Positions 5,337 through 63,768 of a stretch of 64,000 bases of DNA are shown here, piece after piece. Within the stretch, counting starts at the first letter, position 1. Each line of letters opens with the position of its first letter. This DNA is from an uncultured Pelagibacteraceae bacterium (lineage in GTDB: Bacteria > Pseudomonadota > Alphaproteobacteria > Pelagibacterales > Pelagibacteraceae), in contig CABYTL010000001.1 in assembly GCA_902521805.1 (NCBI GenBank), positions 62,001 through 126,000 of the forward strand, given 5' to 3'. Below the pieces are notes generated by a model. The model was not told the origin of the DNA. It saw only the letters and a list, made by a program, of their open reading frames with translations, and ran no database searches. A program made the position numbers and the translations under genes.

Positions 5337-8300
5337 ATGCAAATATCTTTTACTGAAAAAAAGAATATTAGAAAAAATTTTGGTAAGCTGAAAGAAAGCT
5401 TATCAATTCCTAATCTTATAGAAGTTCAAAAAAATTCTTATGATGAATTAACATTTTTTAATTCTGAAGCTGAAATTACTAAAGGATTCGATAGAGTATT
5501 CAAAAGTATTTTTCCAATAGAAGATTTAAATGATAAAGCAACTTTGGAATATGTATCTTATAGACTAGAAAAACCTAAATTTGACGTTGAGGAGTGTATA
5601 GCTAGAGGACTTACATATTCTTCAGCACTAAAATGTACTTTAAGACTAGTTGTATACGAAATTGATCAAGAAAATAATACTAAAGATATTTTATCAGCAA
5701 AGGAGCAAGAAGTTTATATGGGTGAAGTACCAATGATGACAAACAGCGGTACTTTTATAACGAATGGTGTGCAAAGAGTAGTTGTAAATCAAATGCATAG
5801 AAGTCCTGGAGTATTTTTTGACCATGATAAAGGTAAAACACACGCTAGTGGTAAATTGTTATTCAGCTGTAGAGTAATTCCAAATAGAGGCTCATGGTTA
5901 GATTTTGAATATGATGTGAAAGATTTTTTATATTTTAAAATCGACAGAAAAAAAAAGATCCTTTCTTCAACATTGCTGTTGGCTTTAGGATATACAAAAT
6001 CTGAAATAGTTGATGAATTTTATGATAAAGAACAATTCATATTTGACTCAAAAACTGGAAAGTGGAAAACCAAATTTAATCCAGAAAATTATAAAGCTAA
6101 AAATTTTTCTGAGGAAGTTTTGGACGCGAAGACAGGTAAGATAGTAATTAAACTTGGAGAAAAAGTTAATTTTCTAAATGCAAAAAAATTATCGAATGAT
6201 GGATTAAAAGATGTTTTGATATCGAAAGAAGCATTATATGGAAAATTTTTACACAAAGAAATCAAAATAAGTGATGATGAAGAGGGTGTTTTTAAGATTG
6301 GTACCGAACTAAATGAAACTATTATTGAAAAGATTTTGGAAGCTAACGTAAATACATTGGAAATTTCAATTACAAATTCAATAAACAAAGGTCCTTACTT
6401 ACTAACTACTATTTTAAATGATAAAAATAACTCTAAGGATGAGGCAATTACTGAAATTTATAAAATGTTAAGACCTGGTGAGCCACCAACAATAGAAATT
6501 GCTACACAAATATTTAATAATCTATTTTTTAGCTCTGATAGATACGATCTCTCTGACGTTGGTCGTGTTAAAATGAATTCAAGATTAAATCTAGAATGTT
6601 CTGACAAAATCACAATTTTAAGAAATGATGATATAATTGCTATTATTCATAAAATGTTAGATTTGAGAGATGGTAAAGATGAAGTCGATGATATTGACCA
6701 TCTGGGAAATAGAAGGGTTAGATCAGTAGGAGAGTTAGTTGAAAACCAAGCAAGAATAGGTGTTTATAGAATGGAACGGGCAATCAAAGAAAAAATGTCA
6801 ACACTTGATGTAGAGTCAGCAATGCCACAAGATTTAATTAATGCAAAACCATTAACTGTCTCTTTAAAAGATTTTTTTGCAAGTTCGCAATTATCTCAAT
6901 TTATGGATCAAACAAATCCATTGTCGGAAATAACTCATAAAAGAAGAGTTTCAGCTTTAGGACCAGGTGGGTTAACAAGAGAAAGAGCTGGATTTGAAGT
7001 ACGTGATGTTCACCCTACTCATTACGGAAGGATATGTCCAATAGAGACACCTGAGGGTCCAAATATTGGACTAATAAATAGTTTATCAACATATGCAAAA
7101 ATTAATAAATATGGATTTATTGAAAGTCCTTACAAAAGAGTCAAAAATGGAGTTGTTCAGGATACTGTGGAATATTTGTCTGCTATGGAGGAAACTAAAT
7201 TTACAATTGCTCAAGCAAATACAAAGATAGATAAAAATGGTAAAATTGTTGAAGAATTAGTATCTTGTAGAGAGAATTTAAATTTTTTATTATCTAAACC
7301 TGAAACTATTGACTATATAGACGTTTCTCCCAAACAGTTAGTTTCTGTAGCAGCTTCTTTAATTCCATTCTTAGAAAATGATGATGCTAACAGAGCTTTA
7401 ATGGGATCAAATATGATGAGACAAGCAGTTCCTTTACTTAAACCCGAGTCACCATTAGTAGGTACAGGGATTGAAAGTGATGTTGCATTAGACTCTGGTG
7501 TAACAATTGTAGCTAAAAGAGATGGCATAGTAGACAAAATTGACGGTAAAAGAATAGTTGTCAAAGTAACTGAAGAAACAGATTTTACAAAATCAAGCGT
7601 TGATATTTATAATTTACAAAAATTTAAAAGATCAAACCAAAATACGTGTATTAATCAGAGACCTCTAGTTAGAGTAGGAGATAAAGTTAAATTAGGTGAT
7701 ATAATTGCAGATGGCCCATCAACTAGGCTGGGTGAGTTAGCGTTAGGTAAAAATGTAACTGTAGCATTTATGCCTTGGCAAGGTTACAATTTTGAGGACT
7801 CAATCTTGATTTCTGAAAGATGTGTAACTGATGATGTCTTCACTTCTGTTCATATTGTCGAGTATGAGATCATGGCAAGAGACACTAAATTAGGAGAGGA
7901 AGAAATTACAAGGGATATTCCTAATGTAAATGAGGATGCATTAAAAAATTTAGACGAATCTGGCATTGTATATATTGGAGCTGAAGTAAACGCTGGTGAT
8001 ATTTTAGTTGGTAAAGTAACACCGAAAGGAGACTCTGCATCTGGACCAGAGGAAAAATTATTAAGATCAATTTTTGGTGAAAAAGCTATAGATGTTACAG
8101 ATACATCTCTAAGAATGTCTAGAGGTAGTAGCGGAACAGTTGTTGACGTAAAAGTGTTTAATAGACATGGTATCGAAAAAGATGAAAGATCAATCACTAT
8201 TGAAAGAGCAGAAATCGATCAGGTACAACAGGATAAAATTGTTGAGGAAGAAATTTTAGAAAGAAGTATAAAACAAAGAGCTGCACAATTTCTATCTGGG

Positions 8301-9422
8301 ACATCTTTAATTAAAAAAATTAAAGATCTTGATACAGGAACAAAATTAAGTTTTGAAAATATTAATAAGCTTTCTATTAACGATATGTTTAAAATTATTG
8401 TCGGAAATGAAAAAAGTGAAGCTACATTAGCTCAACTAAAAGACCAGTATAATAGAGCTAAACAAGATATTACTGAAAGATTTGAGGATAAAGTTTTAAA
8501 AATAAGAAGTGGTGATGATCTATTACCTAGTGTTATGAAAATGGTAAAAGTTTTTGTAGCAATTAAAAGAAGACTAAGACCAGGTGATAAAATGTCAGGA
8601 AGACACGGCAACAAAGGTGTTGTTAGTAAAATCGTACCCGTTGAAGATATGCCTTATAGAGAAGATGGCAGACCAGTGGATATAGTTTTAAATCCTTTAG
8701 GTGTGCCTAGCCGTATGAACGTAGGTCAGATTTTAGAAACTCACTTGGGTTGGGCTTGTAAAGAATTTGGAGAAGAAGTTAAAAAACTAGTAAATCAAAA
8801 TAATAAAAAAATTGAAAAAACAGAAAAAATTTCAAAATTTTTGAAATCTGTTTATGGCGAAGAGATATTTGAAGAAAAAGTGGATAAACTAAGTAAAACA
8901 GAATTTAGAGACTTGTGTGAAAACTTACAAAACGGTATTGCAATTTCCACGCCTGTTTTTGATGGAGCAAAAGAGAGAGATGTAACTGAGATGCTTGAAT
9001 TAGCAAATCTTCCTGGATCAGGACAAACATATTTGTGGGATGGAAGAACAGGAGAAAAATTTGATAGACCTGTTACTGTTGGAATTATTTACATGTTAAA
9101 ACTTCACCACTTAGTAGAAGATAAAATACATGCAAGATCTACAGGACCTTATAGTTTAGTAACTCAGCAGCCATTAGGAGGTAAAGCTCAACTTGGAGGT
9201 CAGAGATTTGGTGAAATGGAGGTATGGGCCTTGGAAGCATATGGTGCTTCGTATACCTTGCAGGAAATTCTGACTGTAAAATCAGATGATGTAGCTGGTA
9301 GAGTAAAAGTCTATGAAACAATTGTTAAGGGTGAAGAAAACTTTGAGTCGGGTATACCAGAATCATTTAATGTTTTAGTAAAAGAAATTAAATCATTAGC
9401 TTTAAATGTAGAGCTCAATTAA
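5337..9422 (+). CDS. rpoB: DNA-directed RNA polymerase subunit beta
   Basis: RpoB (1361 residues) forms one pincer of RNA polymerase and much of the active-site cleft. The rifampicin-pocket region (about residues 515-565) reads like the sensitive E. coli sequence, including [21 protein letters not shown] and the following [25 protein letters not shown] and the C-terminal [18 protein letters not shown] are also clear. The protein is somewhat longer than E. coli RpoB (1342). It lies between rplL and rpoC; rpoC starts two bases after its stop. Confidence 0.99.
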
Positions 9423-55455: not shown

Positions 55456-55478
55456 CACTTAATACACTATGTCATAAG

Positions 55479-55569
55479 GAAGAGTGGGTGAGAGGCTTAA
55501 ACCAGTCGTTTGCTAAATGACCGTGCGAGGAAACTTGTACCGAGGGTTCGAATCCCTCCTCTTCCGCCA
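55479..55569 (+). tRNA. tRNA-Ser (anticodon GCT)
   Basis: Acceptor GGAAGAG (55479-55485) pairs perfectly with CTCTTCC (55559-55565), followed by discriminator G and encoded CCA. The anticodon loop TTGCTAA gives GCT (Ser, AGC/AGU codons). A long class II variable arm and the GGTTCGAATCC T-arm confirm serine. It stands alone, divergent from soxB and just upstream of the DUF4956/CotH/VTC cassette. Confidence 0.96.
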
Positions 55570-55584
55570 CATTCAAATATAGGC

Positions 55585-55614
55585 TTGCCTTTAAATAATC
55601 CTTCATTTTATGAT
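55585..55614 (+). promoter_or_regulatory. Likely promoter of the DUF4956-CotH-VTC cassette
   Basis: TTGCCT (55585-55590) and TATGAT (55609-55614) are 18 bases apart, placing a start near 55621. A 7-bp inverted repeat, TTATGAT (55608-55614)/ATCATAA (55626-55632), overlaps the -10 and the predicted start, as an operator might. Pattern-based inference. Confidence 0.45.
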
Positions 55615-55653
55615 GTTTAAATCGTATCATAATTGAGTATAAATATTGATACT

Positions 55654-56292
55654 ATGGAAATTAGCACAGAAACGATTCTTAGCATTACAATTAGTCTGAT
55701 AATTTTAATAATTTCAAGTATAAGTTTCAGAATATTATTAGAATATATTGGCCAAAAATGGGTAGTCACTTATGCTCATACTTTTACTATTGTTGCATTA
55801 CCAGTTATAACATTCGTAATTACCAGCGTTATTTCTGGAAATATCGCACTGTCACTTGGAATGGTTGGAGCACTATCTATAGTTAGGTTTAGAAATCCTG
55901 TTAGATCTCCCTTAGAATTATGTGTTTACTTTGCATCTATTACAATGGGAATTTCGGCATCAGTAAATATTAAATGGCTTATATTTTTTGTTTTTTCAAT
56001 TTTGATAATAATTTTGACATTAAGTTTAGCATCAAAAATTAGTCTATCTTTTTTTAAAAAACCTTTTTTTTTTACATCATTTACTGAAGGTAATTCTTTA
56101 AGTACACTTGAGATTACTACAAATAAAACAATTAAAATATTAGATGATGATATAGATATGAAATCTAAAGTAATGAATGAAAATGAAATTACTTATTTAT
56201 TAGCATCAAACAATTTTATTAAACTTAAGAAATTAATTAATCAATTAGAGCAAGAAGAAAAAAACTTTAAATATCAATTAAGATCAAACTAA
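55654..56292 (+). CDS. DUF4956 family membrane protein
   Basis: About 212 residues from ATG 55654 (a TTG at 55633 would add seven). Hydrophobic helices lie at about residues 6-27, 42-75 (possibly two) and 100-120, followed by a cytosolic C-terminal domain of about 90 residues. The conserved core SLGMVGALSIVRFRNPVRSP is characteristic of DUF4956. Function is unknown; the family is found beside CotH and VTC-domain genes in many bacteria. It is first in a four-gene run, one base before the CotH-like gene, and may be the membrane anchor or channel of the system. Confidence 0.8.
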   Translation: MEISTETILSITISLIILIISSISFRILLEYIGQKWVVTYAHTFTIVALPVITFVITSVISGNIALSLGMVGALSIVRFRNPVRSPLELCVYFASITMGISASVNIKWLIFFVFSILIIILTLSLASKISLSFFKKPFFFTSFTEGNSLSTLEITTNKTIKILDDDIDMKSKVMNENEITYLLASNNFIKLKKLINQLEQEEKNFKYQLRSN

Positions 56293-56293
56293 A

Positions 56294-58522
56294 ATGTTTC
56301 TAAGAATTTTAGTTACAATAATAATAATTTTTTCTACATTATCTAAAAGTGTTTTAGCTAATTGTGATTTTAATCATTTTGATTTTTTAGAAGAATTAAA
56401 TGATCCTTCTTATTTGAAATCAATAAATATTAAAGTTAATAAAAAAAAAAGTTTCTACAAAAACTTTTATCAAATTATGGTTTCAAAATCAGAGAATATT
56501 CCACCAAATTTAAAAAAAAACTTTCGATCCAAAGTAATTGTAAACTATAAATTTGGTAAATGTAAATATAAAGCAAATGTTAGACAGCTCGGTGACTGGA
56601 AAGATCATGTCAAGATTGCTAATGGTCAACCTTATCGATCATTAAAAGTTAATTTAAAAGAAGGAAATATTCTCAATGCAGTGAAGTTTAAATTATTTAT
56701 TCCTGAAACAAGAAATCATTATAATGAAATACTAGGAACCATAATATTAAATAAATTAGGTTTTTTGGCACCAGAAACATTTGAAGTAGATTTAATTTTA
56801 AATAATTCAAATTATAAAACTATATTTCAAGAAGATACAACAAAGGAATTTTTAGAAAGGAATAAAAAAAGAGAAGGACCTATTTTTGAGGGAGATGAAA
56901 GTCTCATATGGTCCTATAAAAATAAAGATAATTTCGAACTAGAAAATGTCTCATTATCGCGTTTAACTAATTATAAATGGTTTTTGAAAGGAGAAAACTC
57001 AGAAGAAATTGTTTTAAGATCCTTTAATAAATTACAAAAATCATATTTAAACTATGCAAATAATTTCCCTAAAAGTTCACTTCTAATGCTTCCAAACAAT
57101 AAAGATGATCAATTTTTTCAAGATTATTATTTTATATTAACAGCAATGAACGCATCTCATGCATTAAGACCACACAATAGGAAATTTTACTATAATTCAT
57201 TCACAGATAAATTTGAACCAATTTATTATGATGGAGATTTAAAATTGGATTCACCTTTATGGTTCCGATTTGGTTCTATTGAAGATGATTTAAAATTTTT
57301 CGATAATAAATTTTCTTTTTCAAAGATGGATTTATTAAAAGATAATCGTTTTAAAAAAGAAATTTTAGATGATTTTAAAAAAAAGGTTATAGATTTTGAT
57401 AAAGCGTTAGAATTATTTTATACAAAAAGTATTCAACATATAATTAAAAATACTGATGAACTTCATGGATTAATTAATGATATTCGTACAACTGAATTAA
57501 AGTTTAAAAATAACGATCAATTTAAAAAAAAACTAATAGATAATTATATTTCTAGAATAGAAAATCACGAAGTTATACAAAAAAATATAATTTCCTTAAT
57601 AAAAGATAAAAAAATTTATGAAGCATATTTGGAACCAAATAAAAAAATTATTTTAACACCCAATGATTTATCACTCATATTGCAAGGGAATATTTTTGAA
57701 AACAAAAGATATGTTATATTAAATTCTTTTAATAATTTTAATGAAAAAACATTTTATACTGAAGATTTTCAACTTGATAATTTAAGTAAGGGTAAAATCA
57801 TTTATTCAAAAGGAATTTCATTTGATATTGATAGGATAAAAAAAATAATTGATATAAAACAAAATAACCCGTCAGATTGGATTTTTTTTAAAAATATTAA
57901 TTTTTCGAATTGGTTAATTAATTTCAATGGAAAATTAAATATTCCAAATGATGTAAAATTATCTCAAAGATTAAATTCTAATGGACTAACTGGTTGTCTG
58001 AATTTTTTAAACTCTTTTTTTGAAAATACTTCAATTAAATTTTATAATGGCCGATGTGAAGATAGCGTAAATATAATTAAGTCTAATGGTTCTATAAAAT
58101 CTATAAATATATACAATTCTTTTTCAGATGGTCTTGATATTGATTTTTCTAACATAACTATTGATGAACTTTTTGTTAAAAAATCTGGCAATGATTGTCT
58201 AGATGTAAGTGGCGGTAATTACAAAATTGTTTCAGCAAATCTTTCAGGATGTAATGATAAAGCATTATCTATTGGTGAAGTTTCTGAATTAAACGGTAAT
58301 AAAATTGAAGTTAATAATAGCAACATAGGTATTTCAGTCAAAGATTATTCAAAATCATTGATTAAAAACTTTAAAGCAACAACTGTTAATGTATGTGTTG
58401 AAGCTCTTCAAAAAAAACAAGAATTTGGAGGTGCTATAGCAAATTTTGAAGTTTTAAAATGTGACGGGTTTTCAAATAATGATAAAAATTCTTTGATTAA
58501 TAAAAATTATAATGAGCTTTAG
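56294..58522 (+). CDS. Secreted CotH-kinase-like protein with C-terminal beta-helix
   Basis: A 742-residue exported protein. A signal peptide (about residues 1-22, ending SVLA) leads to a CotH-like region (about 60-420). Clues are RQLGDWKDHV, YRSLKVNLKEGN, the IPETRNHYNEILGTIILNKLG helix region (seen in part), IFQEDTTKEFLERN, and FEPIYYDGDLKLD near residues 307-319, resembling the CotH metal-binding segment. The last 200 residues show repeating short strands with NDCLDVSGG and NDKALSIGE, typical of a right-handed beta-helix. CotH proteins are atypical secreted kinases. Activity here is unproven. It overlaps the VTC gene by 11 bases and is very AT-rich. Confidence 0.72.
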   Translation: MFLRILVTIIIIFSTLSKSVLANCDFNHFDFLEELNDPSYLKSINIKVNKKKSFYKNFYQIMVSKSENIPPNLKKNFRSKVIVNYKFGKCKYKANVRQLGDWKDHVKIANGQPYRSLKVNLKEGNILNAVKFKLFIPETRNHYNEILGTIILNKLGFLAPETFEVDLILNNSNYKTIFQEDTTKEFLERNKKREGPIFEGDESLIWSYKNKDNFELENVSLSRLTNYKWFLKGENSEEIVLRSFNKLQKSYLNYANNFPKSSLLMLPNNKDDQFFQDYYFILTAMNASHALRPHNRKFYYNSFTDKFEPIYYDGDLKLDSPLWFRFGSIEDDLKFFDNKFSFSKMDLLKDNRFKKEILDDFKKKVIDFDKALELFYTKSIQHIIKNTDELHGLINDIRTTELKFKNNDQFKKKLIDNYISRIENHEVIQKNIISLIKDKKIYEAYLEPNKKIILTPNDLSLILQGNIFENKRYVILNSFNNFNEKTFYTEDFQLDNLSKGKIIYSKGISFDIDRIKKIIDIKQNNPSDWIFFKNINFSNWLINFNGKLNIPNDVKLSQRLNSNGLTGCLNFLNSFFENTSIKFYNGRCEDSVNIIKSNGSIKSINIYNSFSDGLDIDFSNITIDELFVKKSGNDCLDVSGGNYKIVSANLSGCNDKALSIGEVSELNGNKIEVNNSNIGISVKDYSKSLIKNFKATTVNVCVEALQKKQEFGGAIANFEVLKCDGFSNNDKNSLINKNYNEL

Positions 58523-59147
58523 AAAAGAAAAAAAATATAAATTAACTTACAGTGATCAAAAAATTTTAAAAAAAAATTTGTTTGATAAAGGTATGAAATT
58601 TTTACATCCTAAGAGAGAAGTTAATAGTGTATATTTTGATACAAATAATTTTGATTTTTATCAAAATTCTGAGGAAGGAGTTCTTCCAAGGAAAAAAATA
58701 CGTGTAAGATGGTATAATAAAGATCAATTAAAAATACTTAAAGAGATAAAAATTTCCTCTATTGAAGGACGTTATAAAATTAATGAGCCGTTTTTAGACA
58801 TTGATATACTTTTTGAAAATAATTATCAAATTATTGATAATCAGTTTGGAATTTTAAAACCTCAAACAATGATTACTTATAACCGCGAATATTTTACTCT
58901 AGATAATTTACGTTTAACTTTTGATTTTGACATATATTACAAAAACTTATCTTCATTAAACAGTTCTAATTTTCATGATAATGAATGTGTTTTAGAAATA
59001 AAAGCTAATCAAGAGACAAATGATGATTATATTGAAAAAATTATAGGTTTTCCAACATCAAGATTCTCTAAATATTCTAGATCTATTTTATTTACTAAAG
59101 ATTTATCTTATATACCACAATATTTGAATACTAGATTATATGAATGA
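58512..59147 (+). CDS. VTC-domain (polyphosphate polymerase-like) protein
   Basis: A 211-residue protein forming one VTC domain of the tunnel-shaped triphosphate fold, with no signal peptide or membrane helix. Basic and acidic tunnel residues appear in order: R4-KEKKY at the start, VNSVYFDTNN, KKIRVRWYNK, LKEIKISSIEGRYK, MITYNREYF, LTFDFDIYY and CVLEIKAN. In yeast Vtc4 this domain makes polyphosphate from ATP; bacterial relatives are annotated as polyphosphate polymerase domain proteins. Conservation of the charged strands suggests activity, but the product is unknown. It overlaps its neighbours by 11 and 8 bases. Confidence 0.8.
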   Translation: MSFRKEKKYKLTYSDQKILKKNLFDKGMKFLHPKREVNSVYFDTNNFDFYQNSEEGVLPRKKIRVRWYNKDQLKILKEIKISSIEGRYKINEPFLDIDILFENNYQIIDNQFGILKPQTMITYNREYFTLDNLRLTFDFDIYYKNLSSLNSSNFHDNECVLEIKANQETNDDYIEKIIGFPTSRFSKYSRSILFTKDLSYIPQYLNTRLYE

Positions 59148-61539
59148 AATTATTCAATTATTAGCAAAAGCTATTTATTTTGCTCAAATAGATTCATATT
59201 ATATATTACCTTTAATTGGCTCAATTCAAATTTTTTTTACAGGCATATTTTTTAAAAAAAAAACATTAATTTATCTAAGTATATTTCTACTCGCCATTTT
59301 TAGTTTTTTATTTCCTTTAGTAAAATTAATTCCCAGTCTTGGATCTGATGCATTTTCAGAATTTCAAAAATTAAATTTTGATGAAGTTTATTTTTATATT
59401 AAAACTTTAAATTTTTTCGCTGGATGGTCCGTCAAAAATTTTATTTTATGGCTTTTATTGATTTTTAGTTATGTTTTCTTTATATTAATAATTTTTAATT
59501 TATCAAAAAAATTATCTTTTATAAATTTTTTAAACATAAATTACGTTATTATTTTTTGTTTAATTGTAATTCCATCATTTTTAAATTTTTATAAAGTATC
59601 TTTGCTTTATAGTTCATCAATCTTAGAGAAAAATAATCAATTACAAAATATTGATTATGAACTTAAGGATATAAAAATTGAGATTTCAGAGCCAACTGAT
59701 TTGTCTGTTATATTCTATATAGGAGAAGCAACATCTCGACTACATTGGAGTTTATATAATTACTTCAGACCAACAAATTTAAGTCTTGAAAAATTTTATA
59801 ATGAAAATCCTTTTATTATTTATGACAATATATATTCAACTCATACCCATACCTCTCCATCATTGTTAGATGCGCTGACAATTAAGAAGAGTAACGAAAA
59901 TAATAAAGCTATAAAAATATCCTCAGATTATTCAAGATATACCATAACAGATATTTTGAATAATATTTATATTAATACTGCTTTATATAGTACTCAGGCT
60001 AAATCTGGATCGTGGAATTTCGCATCTTCATTAATATTTCAAAATGCAAATAAACTTCTTTATAGTTCAAAATATAATCTTGGAAATGCAAATTATATTA
60101 ATAAAGAAAAACCCTTTGATCATGAATTTTTAGAGATATTTTTACGTGATATCTCTAATGATATTAGCAAAGATAATAAAAAAAATAATTTTTATGTTTT
60201 TCACAGTTATGCTGGCCATGGAGATTATGAGAAAAATATTCCAAAAGCTTATCATAAAAATTTAGACCAATTTTACGTTAAACAAAGTGATAAAGCTATT
60301 TTTGGTAGAAATTTTAAAAATAATCAAAAACAATTTCTGGAGAACTATGACTCAGCAATGAAATATATAACTGATAATATTTTATTAACTTTAAATAATA
60401 TTTCAAAACTTAATAAACCAATAATTTTTATCTATACTTCTGATCATGGGGAAAGTCCTTTAACTGGTAGAGCTCACGATTCTTCTAGATATATATGGGA
60501 AATGTCATCTGTTCCGTTTATAATATATTTTAATGAACAGGCAAAATTAAAGTACCCAGATTTATATAATAGAATTAATCAAAGATCTTTAAAAAAAAAT
60601 AGAGATCTATTAAGTAATTTTCCCAGTCTTATATTTGAAATATTTAATATAAAAATTTTTGATAAAAATCTTGATCTAGACAAATCCTCTAAATGTAAAT
60701 TTGGAGGTGAAAATTGCTTAGAAGATTATCATATTGTAAGAAATCAACTCAATACACTTGGAGTTGTTAACCTTAAATATCCAATTAAAGAACAGAACGA
60801 TTATATAGATAATACGGACAGGGCTACAACTTTTTCTAATATGAAAAATTATTTATCAAACAAAAGTAGTAATTTAGAAATTTGTAGTCACAGAACAAAC
60901 AGTATAGCAAGATTTATTCGATTTAATGCAATATTGAATTGTATGGAGATAGATATTATTATTGAAGATGATCATTTTGATGTTCGTCACTCATCAGAAA
61001 AATCGACATATCTAAAACTCAAAGATTTAATTAAAATCCAAAAAGAAAAACAAAATTATTTGTGGCTTGATATTAAAAAAATTGAAAATTTAGATCAGTG
61101 TAATAAATTAATGATAAATTTAGATAAAAATTTCAATCAATTTGATAATGCCTTTTTTTTAATTGAATTTCCTTCTGAGGTAATTCATAATATAAATGAA
61201 TTTAATAGTTGTATAACTTCTATTAAAAAAAAAAATTATAAAACATCATATTATATTCCTAATAATATTAAAACAAAATGTTTAGAAGAGTTAGAGTCTA
61301 GTATTTCTAATAATGGTGGATGTAGTTACGTAGATAAGATAACTAAAAAAATATATGAAAGTAAACTTTTTACAGATTTGTCGTTTGACTATAATAACTA
61401 CGATTTTATAAAAAATAGTAAATATATTGATAAGTTTTTACTTAACACTTGGTATGTACCTGATAATGAAATTGCGTTAATAAACGACCAAAATTTCCGT
61501 TTAATAATTCCGTATAATGATAATGTTAATTATAACTAA
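59140..61539 (+). CDS. Membrane sulfatase/phosphoethanolamine-transferase-like protein fused to a GDPD-like domain
   Basis: A 799-residue protein. Four hydrophobic helices occupy about residues 18-170. The periplasmic alkaline-phosphatase-superfamily domain (about 185-520) resembles EptA-type transferases: FYIGEATSRLHWSLYNYF near 192, THTHTSPSL near 234 (likely nucleophile threonine), YTSDHGESP near 433 and GRAHDSSRYIWEM after it. The C-terminal part (about 575-799) has CSHRTNS, a MEIDIIIEDD and an RHSS histidine, then YLWLDIKK, the layout of GDPD/menorin-like barrels. I infer a phospho-headgroup transferase joined to a phosphodiesterase-like domain. Cysteines suggest periplasmic disulfides. 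Confidence 0.68.
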   Translation: MNEIIQLLAKAIYFAQIDSYYILPLIGSIQIFFTGIFFKKKTLIYLSIFLLAIFSFLFPLVKLIPSLGSDAFSEFQKLNFDEVYFYIKTLNFFAGWSVKNFILWLLLIFSYVFFILIIFNLSKKLSFINFLNINYVIIFCLIVIPSFLNFYKVSLLYSSSILEKNNQLQNIDYELKDIKIEISEPTDLSVIFYIGEATSRLHWSLYNYFRPTNLSLEKFYNENPFIIYDNIYSTHTHTSPSLLDALTIKKSNENNKAIKISSDYSRYTITDILNNIYINTALYSTQAKSGSWNFASSLIFQNANKLLYSSKYNLGNANYINKEKPFDHEFLEIFLRDISNDISKDNKKNNFYVFHSYAGHGDYEKNIPKAYHKNLDQFYVKQSDKAIFGRNFKNNQKQFLENYDSAMKYITDNILLTLNNISKLNKPIIFIYTSDHGESPLTGRAHDSSRYIWEMSSVPFIIYFNEQAKLKYPDLYNRINQRSLKKNRDLLSNFPSLIFEIFNIKIFDKNLDLDKSSKCKFGGENCLEDYHIVRNQLNTLGVVNLKYPIKEQNDYIDNTDRATTFSNMKNYLSNKSSNLEICSHRTNSIARFIRFNAILNCMEIDIIIEDDHFDVRHSSEKSTYLKLKDLIKIQKEKQNYLWLDIKKIENLDQCNKLMINLDKNFNQFDNAFFLIEFPSEVIHNINEFNSCITSIKKKNYKTSYYIPNNIKTKCLEELESSISNNGGCSYVDKITKKIYESKLFTDLSFDYNNYDFIKNSKYIDKFLLNTWYVPDNEIALINDQNFRLIIPYNDNVNYN

Positions 61540-61545
61540 AAGATT

Positions 61546-63768
61546 TTAAAATAGTGGCTTATCTTTAAAAAAATCTAACATTTTAATTGGTCTTTGTTCT
61601 AATATATATCTGTAAACATTATAATTTTCTAAAACCCTTTGGACATAATTTCTAGTTTCTTTAAATTTGATTAGCTCTATCCAATCAACATAGTCAATTT
61701 GATTTTTTTGTGGATTTTTATTAATTTTTTTCCAATATTTAACTCTTTTGGGACCTGCGTTGTAAGCCGCTATAGCAAAAGGATAAGCACCCTCATAATT
61801 AAGAATTAATCCTGCAATATAATGAGATCCTAAATTAATATTATATTCAGGATCAGTCGTTAATCTTGATCTAGAGTAAGGTAAATTTGCTTGTTTAGCT
61901 ACTAATTTTGCTGTGTAGGGCATTAATTGCATCAAACCTTTTGCACCTGCATGGCTATTTGCACTTAAATCAAATTCACTCTCCTGTCTAATTATAGAAA
62001 GTATGAATGCAGTTTCAGGGATTTTTCTACCATTTACATATTTAGGAGCACTTATGATTGGATAATTATATTTGTTATGAAATCTTTTTTCATAAGAAGC
62101 TATTTTAGAAATTTGGATTGCAAAATCGAAACGTTCAATATTTGTTGAAAGTTCAGCTGCGAGTAATTCACTTCCACTTCCAATATTATCATTAGCGATA
62201 TGTCTTAAAAGAAATTTCGCATATTTATTTTCATTCAGTTCATCTAATAAATAAATCAATTTTACAATCTCTTTTTTGAAAAAATATTCTCGATATTCTT
62301 TATTAATATCTATATCTTTTGATAATTCAAATTCTTGGCTGGGATCTAATTCTAAAAAAGCTAATTGTCCATAATAAGTAGTCAGATACATTGAAGCAAT
62401 TTTAAACCATTCTTTAGATGATTCATTATTTCCTAGTTTTTTATATGTTCTTCCAAGCCAATAAGCTCCTCTTGCTACACTTATAGGATATCCGACATTT
62501 TCATGAAATTTTTCAAAATGATCTTTTGCTAACAAAGGATCATTTAAAAAACTTAAAGCTATCCATCCACTCATCCACTCTGCTGCAGCAAATTCAGGAC
62601 CTTCTGTCATTGCGTGATTACTTGTTATTTTATAAGCTAACTCATATTTTTTTTTGTATATTAGAGATCTTGAAATAATTTCTCTTTCCACCCACCATTT
62701 ATCTGGCCTTATAAGATAATCTTTTGTATTATTTATTTTTGTTAATATCTCAATAGAGCTGTCTACTCTACCTCTTTTCCTTCTCCATTTTAATCTATCG
62801 TAATTAAGTCCTGCATCATCTTTAAATTTTTTAGGGACTTTTGATATTGCATTATCTACGCCATAAGATTTACTCATTAATAATTGTCTAGCAGTATACA
62901 AAAGCTCGTAATCTTTTGGTAAATATCTTAACAATCTTTTTAAATCCCAATACTTATTATTCCATGCAAGATAATCGGCTCTCTTAACATAATCGTCAGC
63001 ATTTAAATATTTTTTAAATTTTTTTCGATAAAATCTTAATTGAGATTTTGATAATTCTGCAGTTATCCAACCTTCTTTAATATATCTAGTTCCTTTTTCG
63101 TTATTTCCAATTAATATATAACTTTCACCAAGAATCATTTTACCAAATCCACTTAATGGTTCCGATAAACCAAACCATCTAATAATTTTTTTTGGAGATA
63201 TTTTCTCATTGGAAAGTTTATGTTCTGCTAAATATTTTAATCTATTTATTCTTGGATAATTCTCATTATTATCTATAAAAACTTTATATTCATAATATGA
63301 TGCATTATTTCCTTTTGTTAAGAGATGTCTCCATTGAATAAAATTATAAATAGATTTATCATTAGCTTTTTTGGCCACTTTTAGAGCTGAGGGCCAATTT
63401 TTTTTTTTCATCTCTAAAATGGCTTTTTTTGCAAGAGAAACATCTTTTTTACTATAAAATTTTGAAGAGATATTTTTCTTTTTTATATTTAACCCAGCAA
63501 TTATTGGTTTTTTTTTTGGCAATAAAAGAATTATCTTTTTGTCCTTATTTTTATTTTCACTAATTTTTATATCTCCTTTGTCTTGAAAGTCTTTTTTTGG
63601 TTTAGATAGAGGTTTTAATAGGTTGACTGAAATTTTTTTTTTAATTTCTTTTTCAGTTAAAACTGGTTTTTTTAAAGGGAGTAATTTTTTTTCATCAGCT
63701 GATAAATAAGCTAAATTACAGGTAGTACAATAAATACAACCGATAAAAAACAATATTTTTTTACTCAT
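61546..63768 (-). CDS. slt: Soluble lytic murein transglycosylase
   Basis: A 740-residue periplasmic enzyme that cleaves peptidoglycan between MurNAc and GlcNAc. A signal sequence (about residues 1-25) is followed by a lysine/proline-rich stretch with three KKP-type repeats (about 30-95), then a long helical superhelix of Slt70 type, and the C-terminal SLT domain (about 585-710). The catalytic glutamate is in SIIRQESEFD near residue 595; GAKGLMQLMPYTAK and AIAAYNAGPKRVKYW are the other signatures. It is convergent with the AP-superfamily gene (six bases) and divergent from dapA. Confidence 0.93.
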   Translation of the reverse strand: MSKKILFFIGCIYCTTCNLAYLSADEKKLLPLKKPVLTEKEIKKKISVNLLKPLSKPKKDFQDKGDIKISENKNKDKKIILLLPKKKPIIAGLNIKKKNISSKFYSKKDVSLAKKAILEMKKKNWPSALKVAKKANDKSIYNFIQWRHLLTKGNNASYYEYKVFIDNNENYPRINRLKYLAEHKLSNEKISPKKIIRWFGLSEPLSGFGKMILGESYILIGNNEKGTRYIKEGWITAELSKSQLRFYRKKFKKYLNADDYVKRADYLAWNNKYWDLKRLLRYLPKDYELLYTARQLLMSKSYGVDNAISKVPKKFKDDAGLNYDRLKWRRKRGRVDSSIEILTKINNTKDYLIRPDKWWVEREIISRSLIYKKKYELAYKITSNHAMTEGPEFAAAEWMSGWIALSFLNDPLLAKDHFEKFHENVGYPISVARGAYWLGRTYKKLGNNESSKEWFKIASMYLTTYYGQLAFLELDPSQEFELSKDIDINKEYREYFFKKEIVKLIYLLDELNENKYAKFLLRHIANDNIGSGSELLAAELSTNIERFDFAIQISKIASYEKRFHNKYNYPIISAPKYVNGRKIPETAFILSIIRQESEFDLSANSHAGAKGLMQLMPYTAKLVAKQANLPYSRSRLTTDPEYNINLGSHYIAGLILNYEGAYPFAIAAYNAGPKRVKYWKKINKNPQKNQIDYVDWIELIKFKETRNYVQRVLENYNVYRYILEQRPIKMLDFFKDKPLF

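What the first reader, a model, noticed from the sequence alone, without database searches (positions are those of the whole stretch)
55585..61539. Four-gene envelope cassette: DUF4956, CotH-like, VTC and AP-superfamily/GDPD fusion
Four overlapping genes combine a membrane protein of unknown function, a secreted kinase-like protein, a polyphosphate-polymerase-like domain and a periplasmic phospho-headgroup transferase-like protein fused to a phosphodiesterase-like domain. The first three families are known to co-occur in bacteria, without a settled role that I know of; the fourth partner is, as far as I recall, not a standard member. All parts handle phosphate, so synthesis and attachment of a phosphate-rich envelope polymer is a reasonable hypothesis. 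It is striking in a streamlined genome.
Basis: partly seen in the sequence, partly recalled or inferred. Interest (0 to 1): 0.82.

Follow-up and report, generated by a model that had tools for sequence, protein, structure and literature searches.

The report
Marine bacterium's polyphosphate-linked surface gene module
A streamlined ocean bacterium carries a small gene set that may make polyphosphate inside the cell and use it to modify sugars on the outside, where cells have no ATP; the same set recurs in many bacteria, sometimes with exported enzymes that break down pyrophosphate.

Summary
The genes are real. Three of the four (DUF4956, CotH-like, VTC) form a conserved module; the fourth is not a regular member. 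Of 61 genus genomes, 16 have VTC and 15 of those 16 have DUF4956. In 13 of 16 the three genes lie together; in 3 contig ends cut them. The fourth gene is in 2 of 61, beside the module only here. Its GDPD part was not confirmed.

New here: the CotH protein carries a polysaccharide-lyase/epimerase-type beta-helix with near-invariant acidic and basic residues. Family I pyrophosphatase occurs in 4 of the 61 genomes, every time inside the module, with an export signal by hydropathy, once fused to CotH. A calcineurin-like phosphoesterase is found with the module in 19 of 80 loci from several phyla.

Best explanation (inferred): cytosolic VTC makes polyphosphate, DUF4956 passes it outward, CotH uses it to phosphorylate a surface glycan held by the beta-helix, and exported phosphohydrolases clear the by-products. 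The three-gene set was already known from Gram-positive Pel loci; this is a variant. The mechanism is untested.

The parts
55478..55569 (+). tRNA-Ser (GCT), 63 bases before the first gene: left boundary of the module, not part of it
   Evidence: ARAGORN
55633..56292 (+). DUF4956 membrane protein (gene 1): five helices (residues 12-133) and a C-terminal ferredoxin/ACT-like domain (142-219); R85 and R87 invariant, K91 near-invariant in the family. Probable start ATG 55654
   Evidence: PF16316 E=1e-8, 35.5 bits over cut-off 30.6; AlphaFold2 model pLDDT 82; C-terminal fold; conserved columns in 66 sequences; hydropathy
56294..58522 (+). CotH-like exported protein (gene 2): N-terminal export stretch, CotH kinase-like domain, long poorly modelled stretch, right-handed beta-helix
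   Evidence: family profile to 5jd9 E=3.6e-16; fold Z 20.7 to 5jd9; relatives hit PF08757 (best E=6.9e-60, L110) and PF13229 (E=3.9e-9, L050); hydropathy
56405..57496 (+). CotH kinase-like domain (about residues 38-401)
   Evidence: aligned range to 5jd9/5jda
57959..58519 (+). beta-helix domain (about residues 556-742), with near-invariant D590 N593 D612 D615 D617 D634 D637 K656 D684 K708
   Evidence: pLDDT over 90 for most of 590-700; Z 15-21 to a phage tail protein, tailspikes, pectate lyases, polygalacturonases and alginate epimerases; column counts
58512..59147 (+). VTC polyphosphate-polymerase-like protein (gene 3), no export or membrane stretch; K8 R64 R66 K80 R125 R134 E162 K164 S186 K187 match yeast Vtc4 K200 R264 R266 K281 R361 R373 E426 K428 S457 K458
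   Evidence: PF09359 E=7.5e-22; profile to Vtc4 3g3q E=2.9e-13; residue mapping through the profile; hydropathy
59140..61539 (+). Sulfatase/phosphoethanolamine-transferase-like membrane protein with a C-terminal domain (60820-61536) of GDPD-like motif pattern (gene 4); linked to the module only in this genome
   Evidence: PF00884 E=4.3e-23; EptC 5zzu E=2.1e-6; C-terminus no profile hit; distribution
61546..63768 (-). soluble lytic transglycosylase (SLT), convergent neighbour: right boundary
   Evidence: PF01464 E=5.4e-25

Best explanation
The module is a transmembrane phosphate relay. Inside the cell the VTC protein makes polyphosphate from ATP (inferred from conserved catalytic residues). DUF4956, a five-helix membrane protein with conserved Arg/Arg/Lys on its presumed cytosolic side, receives the chain from VTC and passes it outward (inferred by analogy with the yeast VTC complex, whose channel is lined with basic residues). 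Outside, where there is no ATP, the exported CotH-like domain uses the polyphosphate as phosphoryl donor to phosphorylate a surface glycan that the fused beta-helix binds or cuts. Exported phosphohydrolases, where present (pyrophosphatase, calcineurin-like phosphoesterase; perhaps the sulfatase-family protein here), remove PPi, trim phosphate or recover Pi. Shown: families, folds, adjacency, compartments as predicted from hydropathy, residue conservation. Inferred: polymerase activity, export through DUF4956, polyphosphate as donor, glycan as substrate.
For: In the genus DUF4956 occurs in 15 of the 16 VTC genomes and in none of the other 45. VTC: 11 of 13 Vtc4 positions checked are identical in the family profile, the other two are S to T and K to R. 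Hydropathy: no membrane stretch in 84 of 84 VTC proteins, one in 94 of 94 DUF4956, an N-terminal hydrophobic stretch in 68 of 81 CotH and 10 of 11 pyrophosphatases (window not included); the window proteins agree. In Anaerolineae, DUF4956 carries an N-terminal PF06439 domain behind a signal-peptide-like stretch, which puts its N-terminus outside and, with five helices, its C-terminus and the Arg/Lys loop inside. Family I pyrophosphatase is in 4 of 61 genus genomes, each time in the module, once fused to CotH-beta-helix; also within one gene of it in L061, L065, L071, L120, L135. H+-PPase, a housekeeping route for PPi, is in 43 of 61, among them 3 of these 4. Calcineurin-like phosphoesterase in 19 of 80 loci, 17 within 1.5 kb of a core gene. 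G012 (100% complete) has VTC but no Ppk hit. Beta-helix of polysaccharide-active type. An epimerase-like cluster lies within six genes in 11 of 108 loci (named by eye). Published: yeast VTC couples cytosolic synthesis to translocation (PMC9911596, abstract and passages); S. intermedius deletions of the DUF4956 and CotH genes change Pel level and aggregation (PMC12345266, section 20).
Against: No activity of any of the proteins is shown. The S. intermedius VTC-gene deletion aggregated and still made Pel, with no change singled out, which argues against an essential role of polyphosphate there. The kinase site departs from classical CotH: the second Asp of the W-D-x-D motif is Asp in only 2 of 13 SAR11-set proteins, and the first is Asp in 31 of 40 diverse ones, so the domain could be a pseudokinase. 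The pyrophosphatase is present in only 4 of the 16 module genomes of the genus, and the window genome has neither it nor a match to the phosphoesterase of L065. In 5 of 30 module genomes searched whole, all Bacteroidota, a lipoprotein-type pyrophosphatase stands away from the module (for one the contig is only 4.4 kb). A channel in DUF4956 is analogy only.
Confidence: 0.35

Rival explanations
1. The polyphosphate is itself the product: VTC and DUF4956 make and export an anionic polyphosphate chain that CotH joins to an envelope polysaccharide. Exported phosphatases control chain length.
For: Same parts; the polymer would suit a carbohydrate-active beta-helix partner and the Pel linkage in Gram-positives (PMC7112168, passages).
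Against: A family I pyrophosphatase fits removal of a PPi by-product better than maintenance of a long chain; a streamlined phosphate-limited ocean bacterium would lose phosphate (general knowledge).
Confidence: 0.22
2. A regulatory or sensory system: DUF4956 (MgtC-like with an ACT-like domain) and VTC sense or adjust cytosolic phosphate/ATP, and the CotH-beta-helix protein processes an exopolysaccharide as a (pseudo)kinase-regulated lyase or epimerase. No polyphosphate crosses the membrane.
For: MgtC resemblance is published for SIR_1592 (PMC12345266, passages); weak MgtC hit E=0.029 for L110 and the MgtC C-terminal domain 2lqj among fold matches (E=0.13); the beta-helix is better conserved than the kinase metal site; deletion phenotypes are on Pel amount.
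Against: Does not explain the pyrophosphatase and phosphoesterase partners.
Confidence: 0.25
3. Phosphate storage and recovery: polyphosphate is placed in the periplasm as a reserve, and the exported pyrophosphatase/phosphoesterase/AP-family enzymes release Pi for uptake.
For: PiT phosphate permease (PF01384 E=4e-105) beside DUF4956-VTC in L046, a similar protein in L047; pyrophosphatase and phosphoesterase partners.
Against: No role for the CotH protein, which is present in 60 of 80 DUF4956 loci.
Confidence: 0.12
4. The four genes are one functional cassette in which the sulfatase-family protein transfers phosphoethanolamine or phosphoglycerol to the module's product.
For: 8-base overlap with VTC in this genome; in some other genomes the place after VTC holds a phosphohydrolase (pyrophosphatase in L065, L120, L135; phosphoesterase in L081, L118).
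Against: Only 2 of 61 genus genomes have the gene, on another contig in the other one; 9 of 9 other genomes with a match in the class sample lack DUF4956.
Confidence: 0.06

Closest known systems
CotH / poly-phosphate polymerase / DUF4956 accessory genes of Gram-positive Pel clusters (PMC7112168; S. intermedius SIR_1592-1594, PMC12345266)
   Same: Same three families side by side; exported CotH; DUF4956 with membrane part and intracellular ACT-like domain.
   Different: No Pel genes recognised by eye around the window module; CotH is fused to a beta-helix (SIR_1594 is described with an FN3 domain); pyrophosphatase and calcineurin-like phosphoesterase partners are not described in the passages I read.
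Clostridium perfringens NELoc-2 VTC-'tubulin'-resolvase-VTC-'tubulin'-CotH cluster (PMC2879425, passages)
   Same: VTC genes with a ~225 aa membrane-predicted neighbour and CotH.
   Different: Duplicated; the partner is annotated tubulin/FtsZ there (I take it, without a test, to be DUF4956); other gene content.
Yeast VTC complex (Vtc1/Vtc3/Vtc4)
   Same: Homologous catalytic domain, 11 of 13 checked positions identical; a membrane partner is expected.
   Different: No SPX domain, no membrane domain on the VTC protein; DUF4956 instead; prokaryotic cell membrane instead of vacuole.
Bacillus CotH kinase (5jd9/5jda)
   Same: Fold and sequence-profile match over the domain.
   Different: Exported, fused to a beta-helix, second metal-motif Asp usually replaced.
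EptA/CptA/EptC phosphoethanolamine transferases (gene 4)
   Same: Membrane segment plus AP-superfamily domain; partial CptA match.
   Different: Far below the CptA model cut-off (60 vs 404 bits); extra C-terminal domain.

Membership tests
DUF4956 (PF16316) | Pfam match over gathering score | tested here: met
   35.5 vs 30.6 bits
VTC polymerase domain (PF09359) | Pfam match over gathering score | tested here: met
   78.5 vs 23 bits
VTC polymerase domain (PF09359) | Vtc4 catalytic residues (R264, R266, E426 named in PMC9911596; the others recalled) | tested here: met
   R264, R266 and E426 all kept; 11 of 13 positions checked identical, S375 is T and K455 is R
VTC polymerase domain (PF09359) | polyphosphate synthesis from ATP | not testable with these tools
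   needs an assay
Eukaryotic VTC complex | SPX domain and membrane domain on the VTC protein | tested here: not met
   211 aa protein with only VTC matched; no membrane stretch in the window protein or in 84 of 84 relatives
CotH kinase (PF08757) | profile membership | tested here: met
   through the family only: window protein alone no Pfam hit, 1 of 13 in A1 hits PF08757; L049, L050, L052, L082, L105, L110 hit it; family profile to CotH 5jd9 E=3.6e-16
CotH kinase (PF08757) | kinase fold | tested here: met
   Z 20.7, rmsd 4.2, 303 aligned with 5jd9; Foldseek E=6.1e-11 to 5jda
CotH kinase (PF08757) | metal motif W-D-x-D (its role is recalled) | tested here: inconclusive
   window keeps D313 and D315; second Asp in 2 of 13 of A1; first Asp in 31 of 40 of A9
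Gram-positive Pel accessory cluster | CotH, polyP polymerase and DUF4956 contiguous | tested here: met
Gram-positive Pel accessory cluster | contiguous with pelDEADAFG | tested here: inconclusive
   neighbours read are sarcosine-oxidase-like proteins (by eye) and SLT; no Pel profile was run
Family I inorganic pyrophosphatase (partner genes in relatives) | PF00719 match and GDGDxxD signature (signature recalled) | tested here: met
   the G012 copy matches 126 of 153 profile positions
GDPD (gene 4 C-terminus) | profile or fold match | tested here: inconclusive
   no Pfam or PDB-sequence match; conserved H, E-x-D, H, K, W pattern in 3 sequences resembles GDPD as recalled; no structure predicted
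Phosphoethanolamine transferase CptA (gene 4) | NCBIfam model cut-off | tested here: not met
   60.1 vs 404 bits

The most novel reading that the evidence does not exclude
Polyphosphate serves as an energy and phosphate currency outside the bacterial cytoplasm: VTC-DUF4956 exports it and a secreted CotH kinase fused to a glycan-active beta-helix uses it, instead of ATP, to phosphorylate surface polysaccharide. In some lineages a dedicated exported pyrophosphatase pulls the reaction forward. This would answer how kinases can work where no ATP exists.
Probability: 0.3. Interest if true: 0.9.

Novelty: new variant of a known kind. Interest (0 to 1): 0.64.

Why it matters
DUF4956 is widespread (at least 578 matched places in the genome collection; of the best 80, 48 have VTC and CotH beside it), yet the set has no settled function that I found. 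The pyrophosphatase and phosphoesterase partners and the conserved beta-helix site narrow it to a testable idea: phosphate chemistry on a surface glycan, paid for by exported polyphosphate. If true, it would define another way to power reactions outside the cytoplasm. It would also bear on why some streamlined, phosphate-limited ocean bacteria spend genes and phosphate on their surface.

Tried and rejected
Defence system: no PADLOC match for any of the four proteins. Plasmid or phage origin: the CotH protein has no match in the plasmid or phage records; DUF4956 of L135 has none in plasmids. Promoters, terminators, repeats: promoter-like sites 75 against 56 in shuffles (sd 7.2), terminators 0, only AT-rich repeats; not used. 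A pattern scan with the full CotH alignment failed for lack of conserved stretches, so DUF4956 was used; the 80 loci kept are the best matches, not a random sample. DUF4956 fold search: the aligned rows cover the C-terminal ferredoxin/ACT-like domain; no credible match for the membrane part appeared, which excludes nothing. Family II pyrophosphatases were not searched. Ppk against VTC: Ppk in 3 of 16 VTC genomes and 12 of 45 others, so no clear replacement of one by the other. The calcineurin-like phosphoesterase of L065 has no match in the 61 genus genomes (no positive control in that set). Its HMM was built from neighbours within six genes of the module, so its placement is partly selected; the re-search of all held ORFs (up to 13 genes away) found none further than two genes. 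PF00149 was confirmed by Pfam for 2 of these proteins only (L065, L135). My first ORF table dropped some overlapping genes; re-counted all frames. In one search I labelled L057 'alpha' although it is from the window's genus; one search corrects it. The single-protein CotH search found 6 of 61 relatives (37 of the genus, 24 of the order), because the family diverges fast.
Full report
WHAT IS THERE. The window lies in a 1.02 Mb, 83% complete genome. Its genus belongs to Pelagibacteraceae: a same-genus genome, G020, has a 13,480-base DUF4956 contig (L056), the length of the AG-365-E14 contig that holds L062. Four + strand genes sit between a tRNA-Ser (55478-55569) and a convergent lytic transglycosylase. 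DUF4956 and VTC pass their Pfam cut-offs. The second protein has no Pfam hit on its own, but a profile of 13 sequences (window included) finds CotH 5jd9 at E=2.5e-7, one of 40 sequences at 3.6e-16, and the predicted fold matches 5jd9 (Z 20.7, rmsd 4.2, 303 residues). Its C-terminal part is a confidently modelled beta-helix. Gene 4 is a sulfatase-family, phosphoethanolamine-transferase-like protein with an extra C-terminal domain of unproven GDPD type.

THE THREE-GENE MODULE IS REAL, THE FOURTH GENE IS NOT A REGULAR PART OF IT. Of 61 genus genomes (window's included), VTC is in 16 and DUF4956 in 15, all among those 16. The exception, G034, has VTC near the start of a short contig, just after a beta-helix fragment. 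In 13 of the 16 the three genes lie together, in two of them (G012, G066) with a pyrophosphatase gene between CotH and VTC; in G020, G034 and G082 contig ends cut them. In a class sample DUF4956 is in 10 of 386 genomes, two of them of the window's genus. Gene 4 is in 2 of 61: here, and in G019 on contig C8 (56-57% identical), while G019's module is on C17; the 19.5 kb around the C8 copy hold no module gene. In the class sample 10 of 386 match gene 4; the nine apart from the window's genome are not among the DUF4956 genomes, and only two of them are strong matches (G302, G142).

PARTNERS. Family I inorganic pyrophosphatase (PF00719) occurs in 4 of 61 genus genomes, every time inside the module: between CotH and VTC (G012, G066), before DUF4956 (G061), or fused to the C-terminus of CotH-beta-helix (G067, 981 aa). 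All have an N-terminal hydrophobic stretch. Twelve of the 16 module genomes lack it. The membrane H+-PPase is present in 43 of 61, including G012, G061 and G067 but not the 77% complete G066; family II pyrophosphatases were not searched. One scan of the species-genome collection gave at least 578 DUF4956 relatives; the best 80 loci were kept. In these, VTC is found in 64, CotH in 60, both in 48, the beta-helix in 48, the pyrophosphatase in 7 (5 within 1.5 kb of a core gene) and a calcineurin-like phosphoesterase in 19 (17 within 1.5 kb); short contigs make these lower bounds. PF00149 was confirmed for two of the phosphoesterases. By gene order over the held loci, 9 of 11 pyrophosphatases lie at zero or one gene from the core, one at four and one at nine; 18 of 18 phosphoesterases lie within two genes (see the selection caveat under Tried and rejected). 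A Pelagibacteraceae genome (L065) and Pareuzebyella sediminis (L135) have all five. Against this: when I searched 30 of the 80 genomes whole, pyrophosphatases were found in 18, and in G477, G480, G483, G487 and G495 (hosts Saprospiraceae, Lewinella and Chitinophagales) a lipoprotein-type copy stood without module genes in the stretches read. The link is therefore tight in SAR11, present in some Flavobacteriia, and not seen in these other Bacteroidota.

HISTORY. A tree of 94 concatenated rows places the SAR11 modules in several separate branches (at least 6 changes of the label). The window type is nested with a module of another alphaproteobacterial family (L055, highest identity 49%). The pyrophosphatase label needs 8 changes and the phosphoesterase label 15. 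Modules and partners have thus been exchanged, gained or lost repeatedly. The quick method and long branches make the exact places uncertain.

RESIDUES AND TOPOLOGY. Of 13 Vtc4 positions mapped, 11 are identical in the family profile (K200, R264, R266, K281, K294, R361, R373, E426, K428, S457, K458) and two differ conservatively (S375 to T, K455 to R); the window protein follows this. R264, R266 and E426 are named in PMC9911596; the choice of the others is recalled. DUF4956 has invariant R85 and R87 and near-invariant K91 in 66 sequences, modelled at and after the end of helix 3. In Anaerolineae DUF4956 starts with a signal-peptide-like stretch and a PF06439 domain (L110, L125); this puts the N-terminus outside and, with five helices, the Arg/Lys loop and ACT-like domain inside, in line with the intracellular ACT domain reported for SIR_1592 (which is described with four membrane segments). 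In the CotH-like proteins G100, R140 and E180 are invariant in 40 of 40, the first metal-motif Asp is kept in 31 of 40, and the second is mostly replaced. The beta-helix line of Asp and Lys (D590, D612, D615, D617, D634, D637, K656, D684, K708) is kept in 36-37 of 40. The nearest folds include pectate lyases and alginate epimerases (Z 15-18), so a carbohydrate substrate is likely; a shared fold does not prove it.

MECHANISM. Inside: ATP to polyphosphate by VTC. Membrane: DUF4956, placed like the membrane part of the yeast VTC complex. Outside: CotH on a beta-helix scaffold, in some genomes with phosphohydrolases. The combination makes sense if polyphosphate is the phosphoryl donor outside; PPi would be the end product of using short chains, and an exported pyrophosphatase is otherwise hard to explain. 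This is inference. The published S. intermedius mutants show that the DUF4956 and CotH genes affect Pel amount and aggregation; no such effect was singled out for the VTC gene.

PRIOR WORK. The co-occurrence is in print (PMC7112168, passages; PMC12345266, passages and section 20; PMC2879425, passages). The S. intermedius paper links the set to phosphate metabolism and says that its analyses failed to find this arrangement outside the Pel locus. Searches of the held library for the set with pyrophosphatase or calcineurin-like phosphoesterase, and for CotH/VTC with SAR11, listed no paper whose title or abstract start describes either (listings only).

VERDICT. Ordinary parts; the three-gene set is a known but unsolved module. 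The new elements are the beta-helix site, the pyrophosphatase and phosphoesterase partners, the natural CotH-pyrophosphatase fusion, and the patchy presence in streamlined SAR11.

Noticed in passing
L046:9621-12772, L047:7523-10512: DUF4956-VTC pairs without CotH beside a PiT-type phosphate permease (PF01384 confirmed for L046; L047 by similar sequence) in alphaproteobacteria.
   Followed up: partly
L110:9275-10621, L112, L125, L127: Anaerolineae DUF4956 proteins with an exported N-terminal domain; PF06439 (3-keto-disaccharide hydrolase-like) confirmed for L110 and L125.
   Followed up: partly
L051:2562-5545, L053:268-3191: DUF4956 beside an exported ~353 aa protein (no Pfam match for the L051 copy) and a metallophosphoesterase (PF00149 for L051) with an N-terminal hydrophobic stretch.
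   Followed up: no
L052:4489-6479: A DUF4956 gene split by two transposase-like genes.
   Followed up: no
L093:9216-20362: Kordiimonadaceae locus with two module copies in opposite orientation.
   Followed up: no
L148:2470-3087, L149:1885-2523, L151:6889-7482, L152:6360-6965: Lipoprotein-type pyrophosphatases away from the module, each followed by a similar-sized ~410-435 aa protein.
   Followed up: no
G067:C15:13873-14404: The Ppk match in G067 is in two pieces with an internal TAG.
   Followed up: no
L147 (Vibrio pelagius plasmid), 8001-8519: A gene annotated 'ParB-like protein' whose C-terminal part matches pyrophosphatase.
   Followed up: no
L010:6218-11271, L011:8318-14070: In G009 and G012 the module sits between ilvC and leuA-mreBCD, a core-gene site different from the tRNA-Ser site here (Pfam run on L010 only).
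   Followed up: partly
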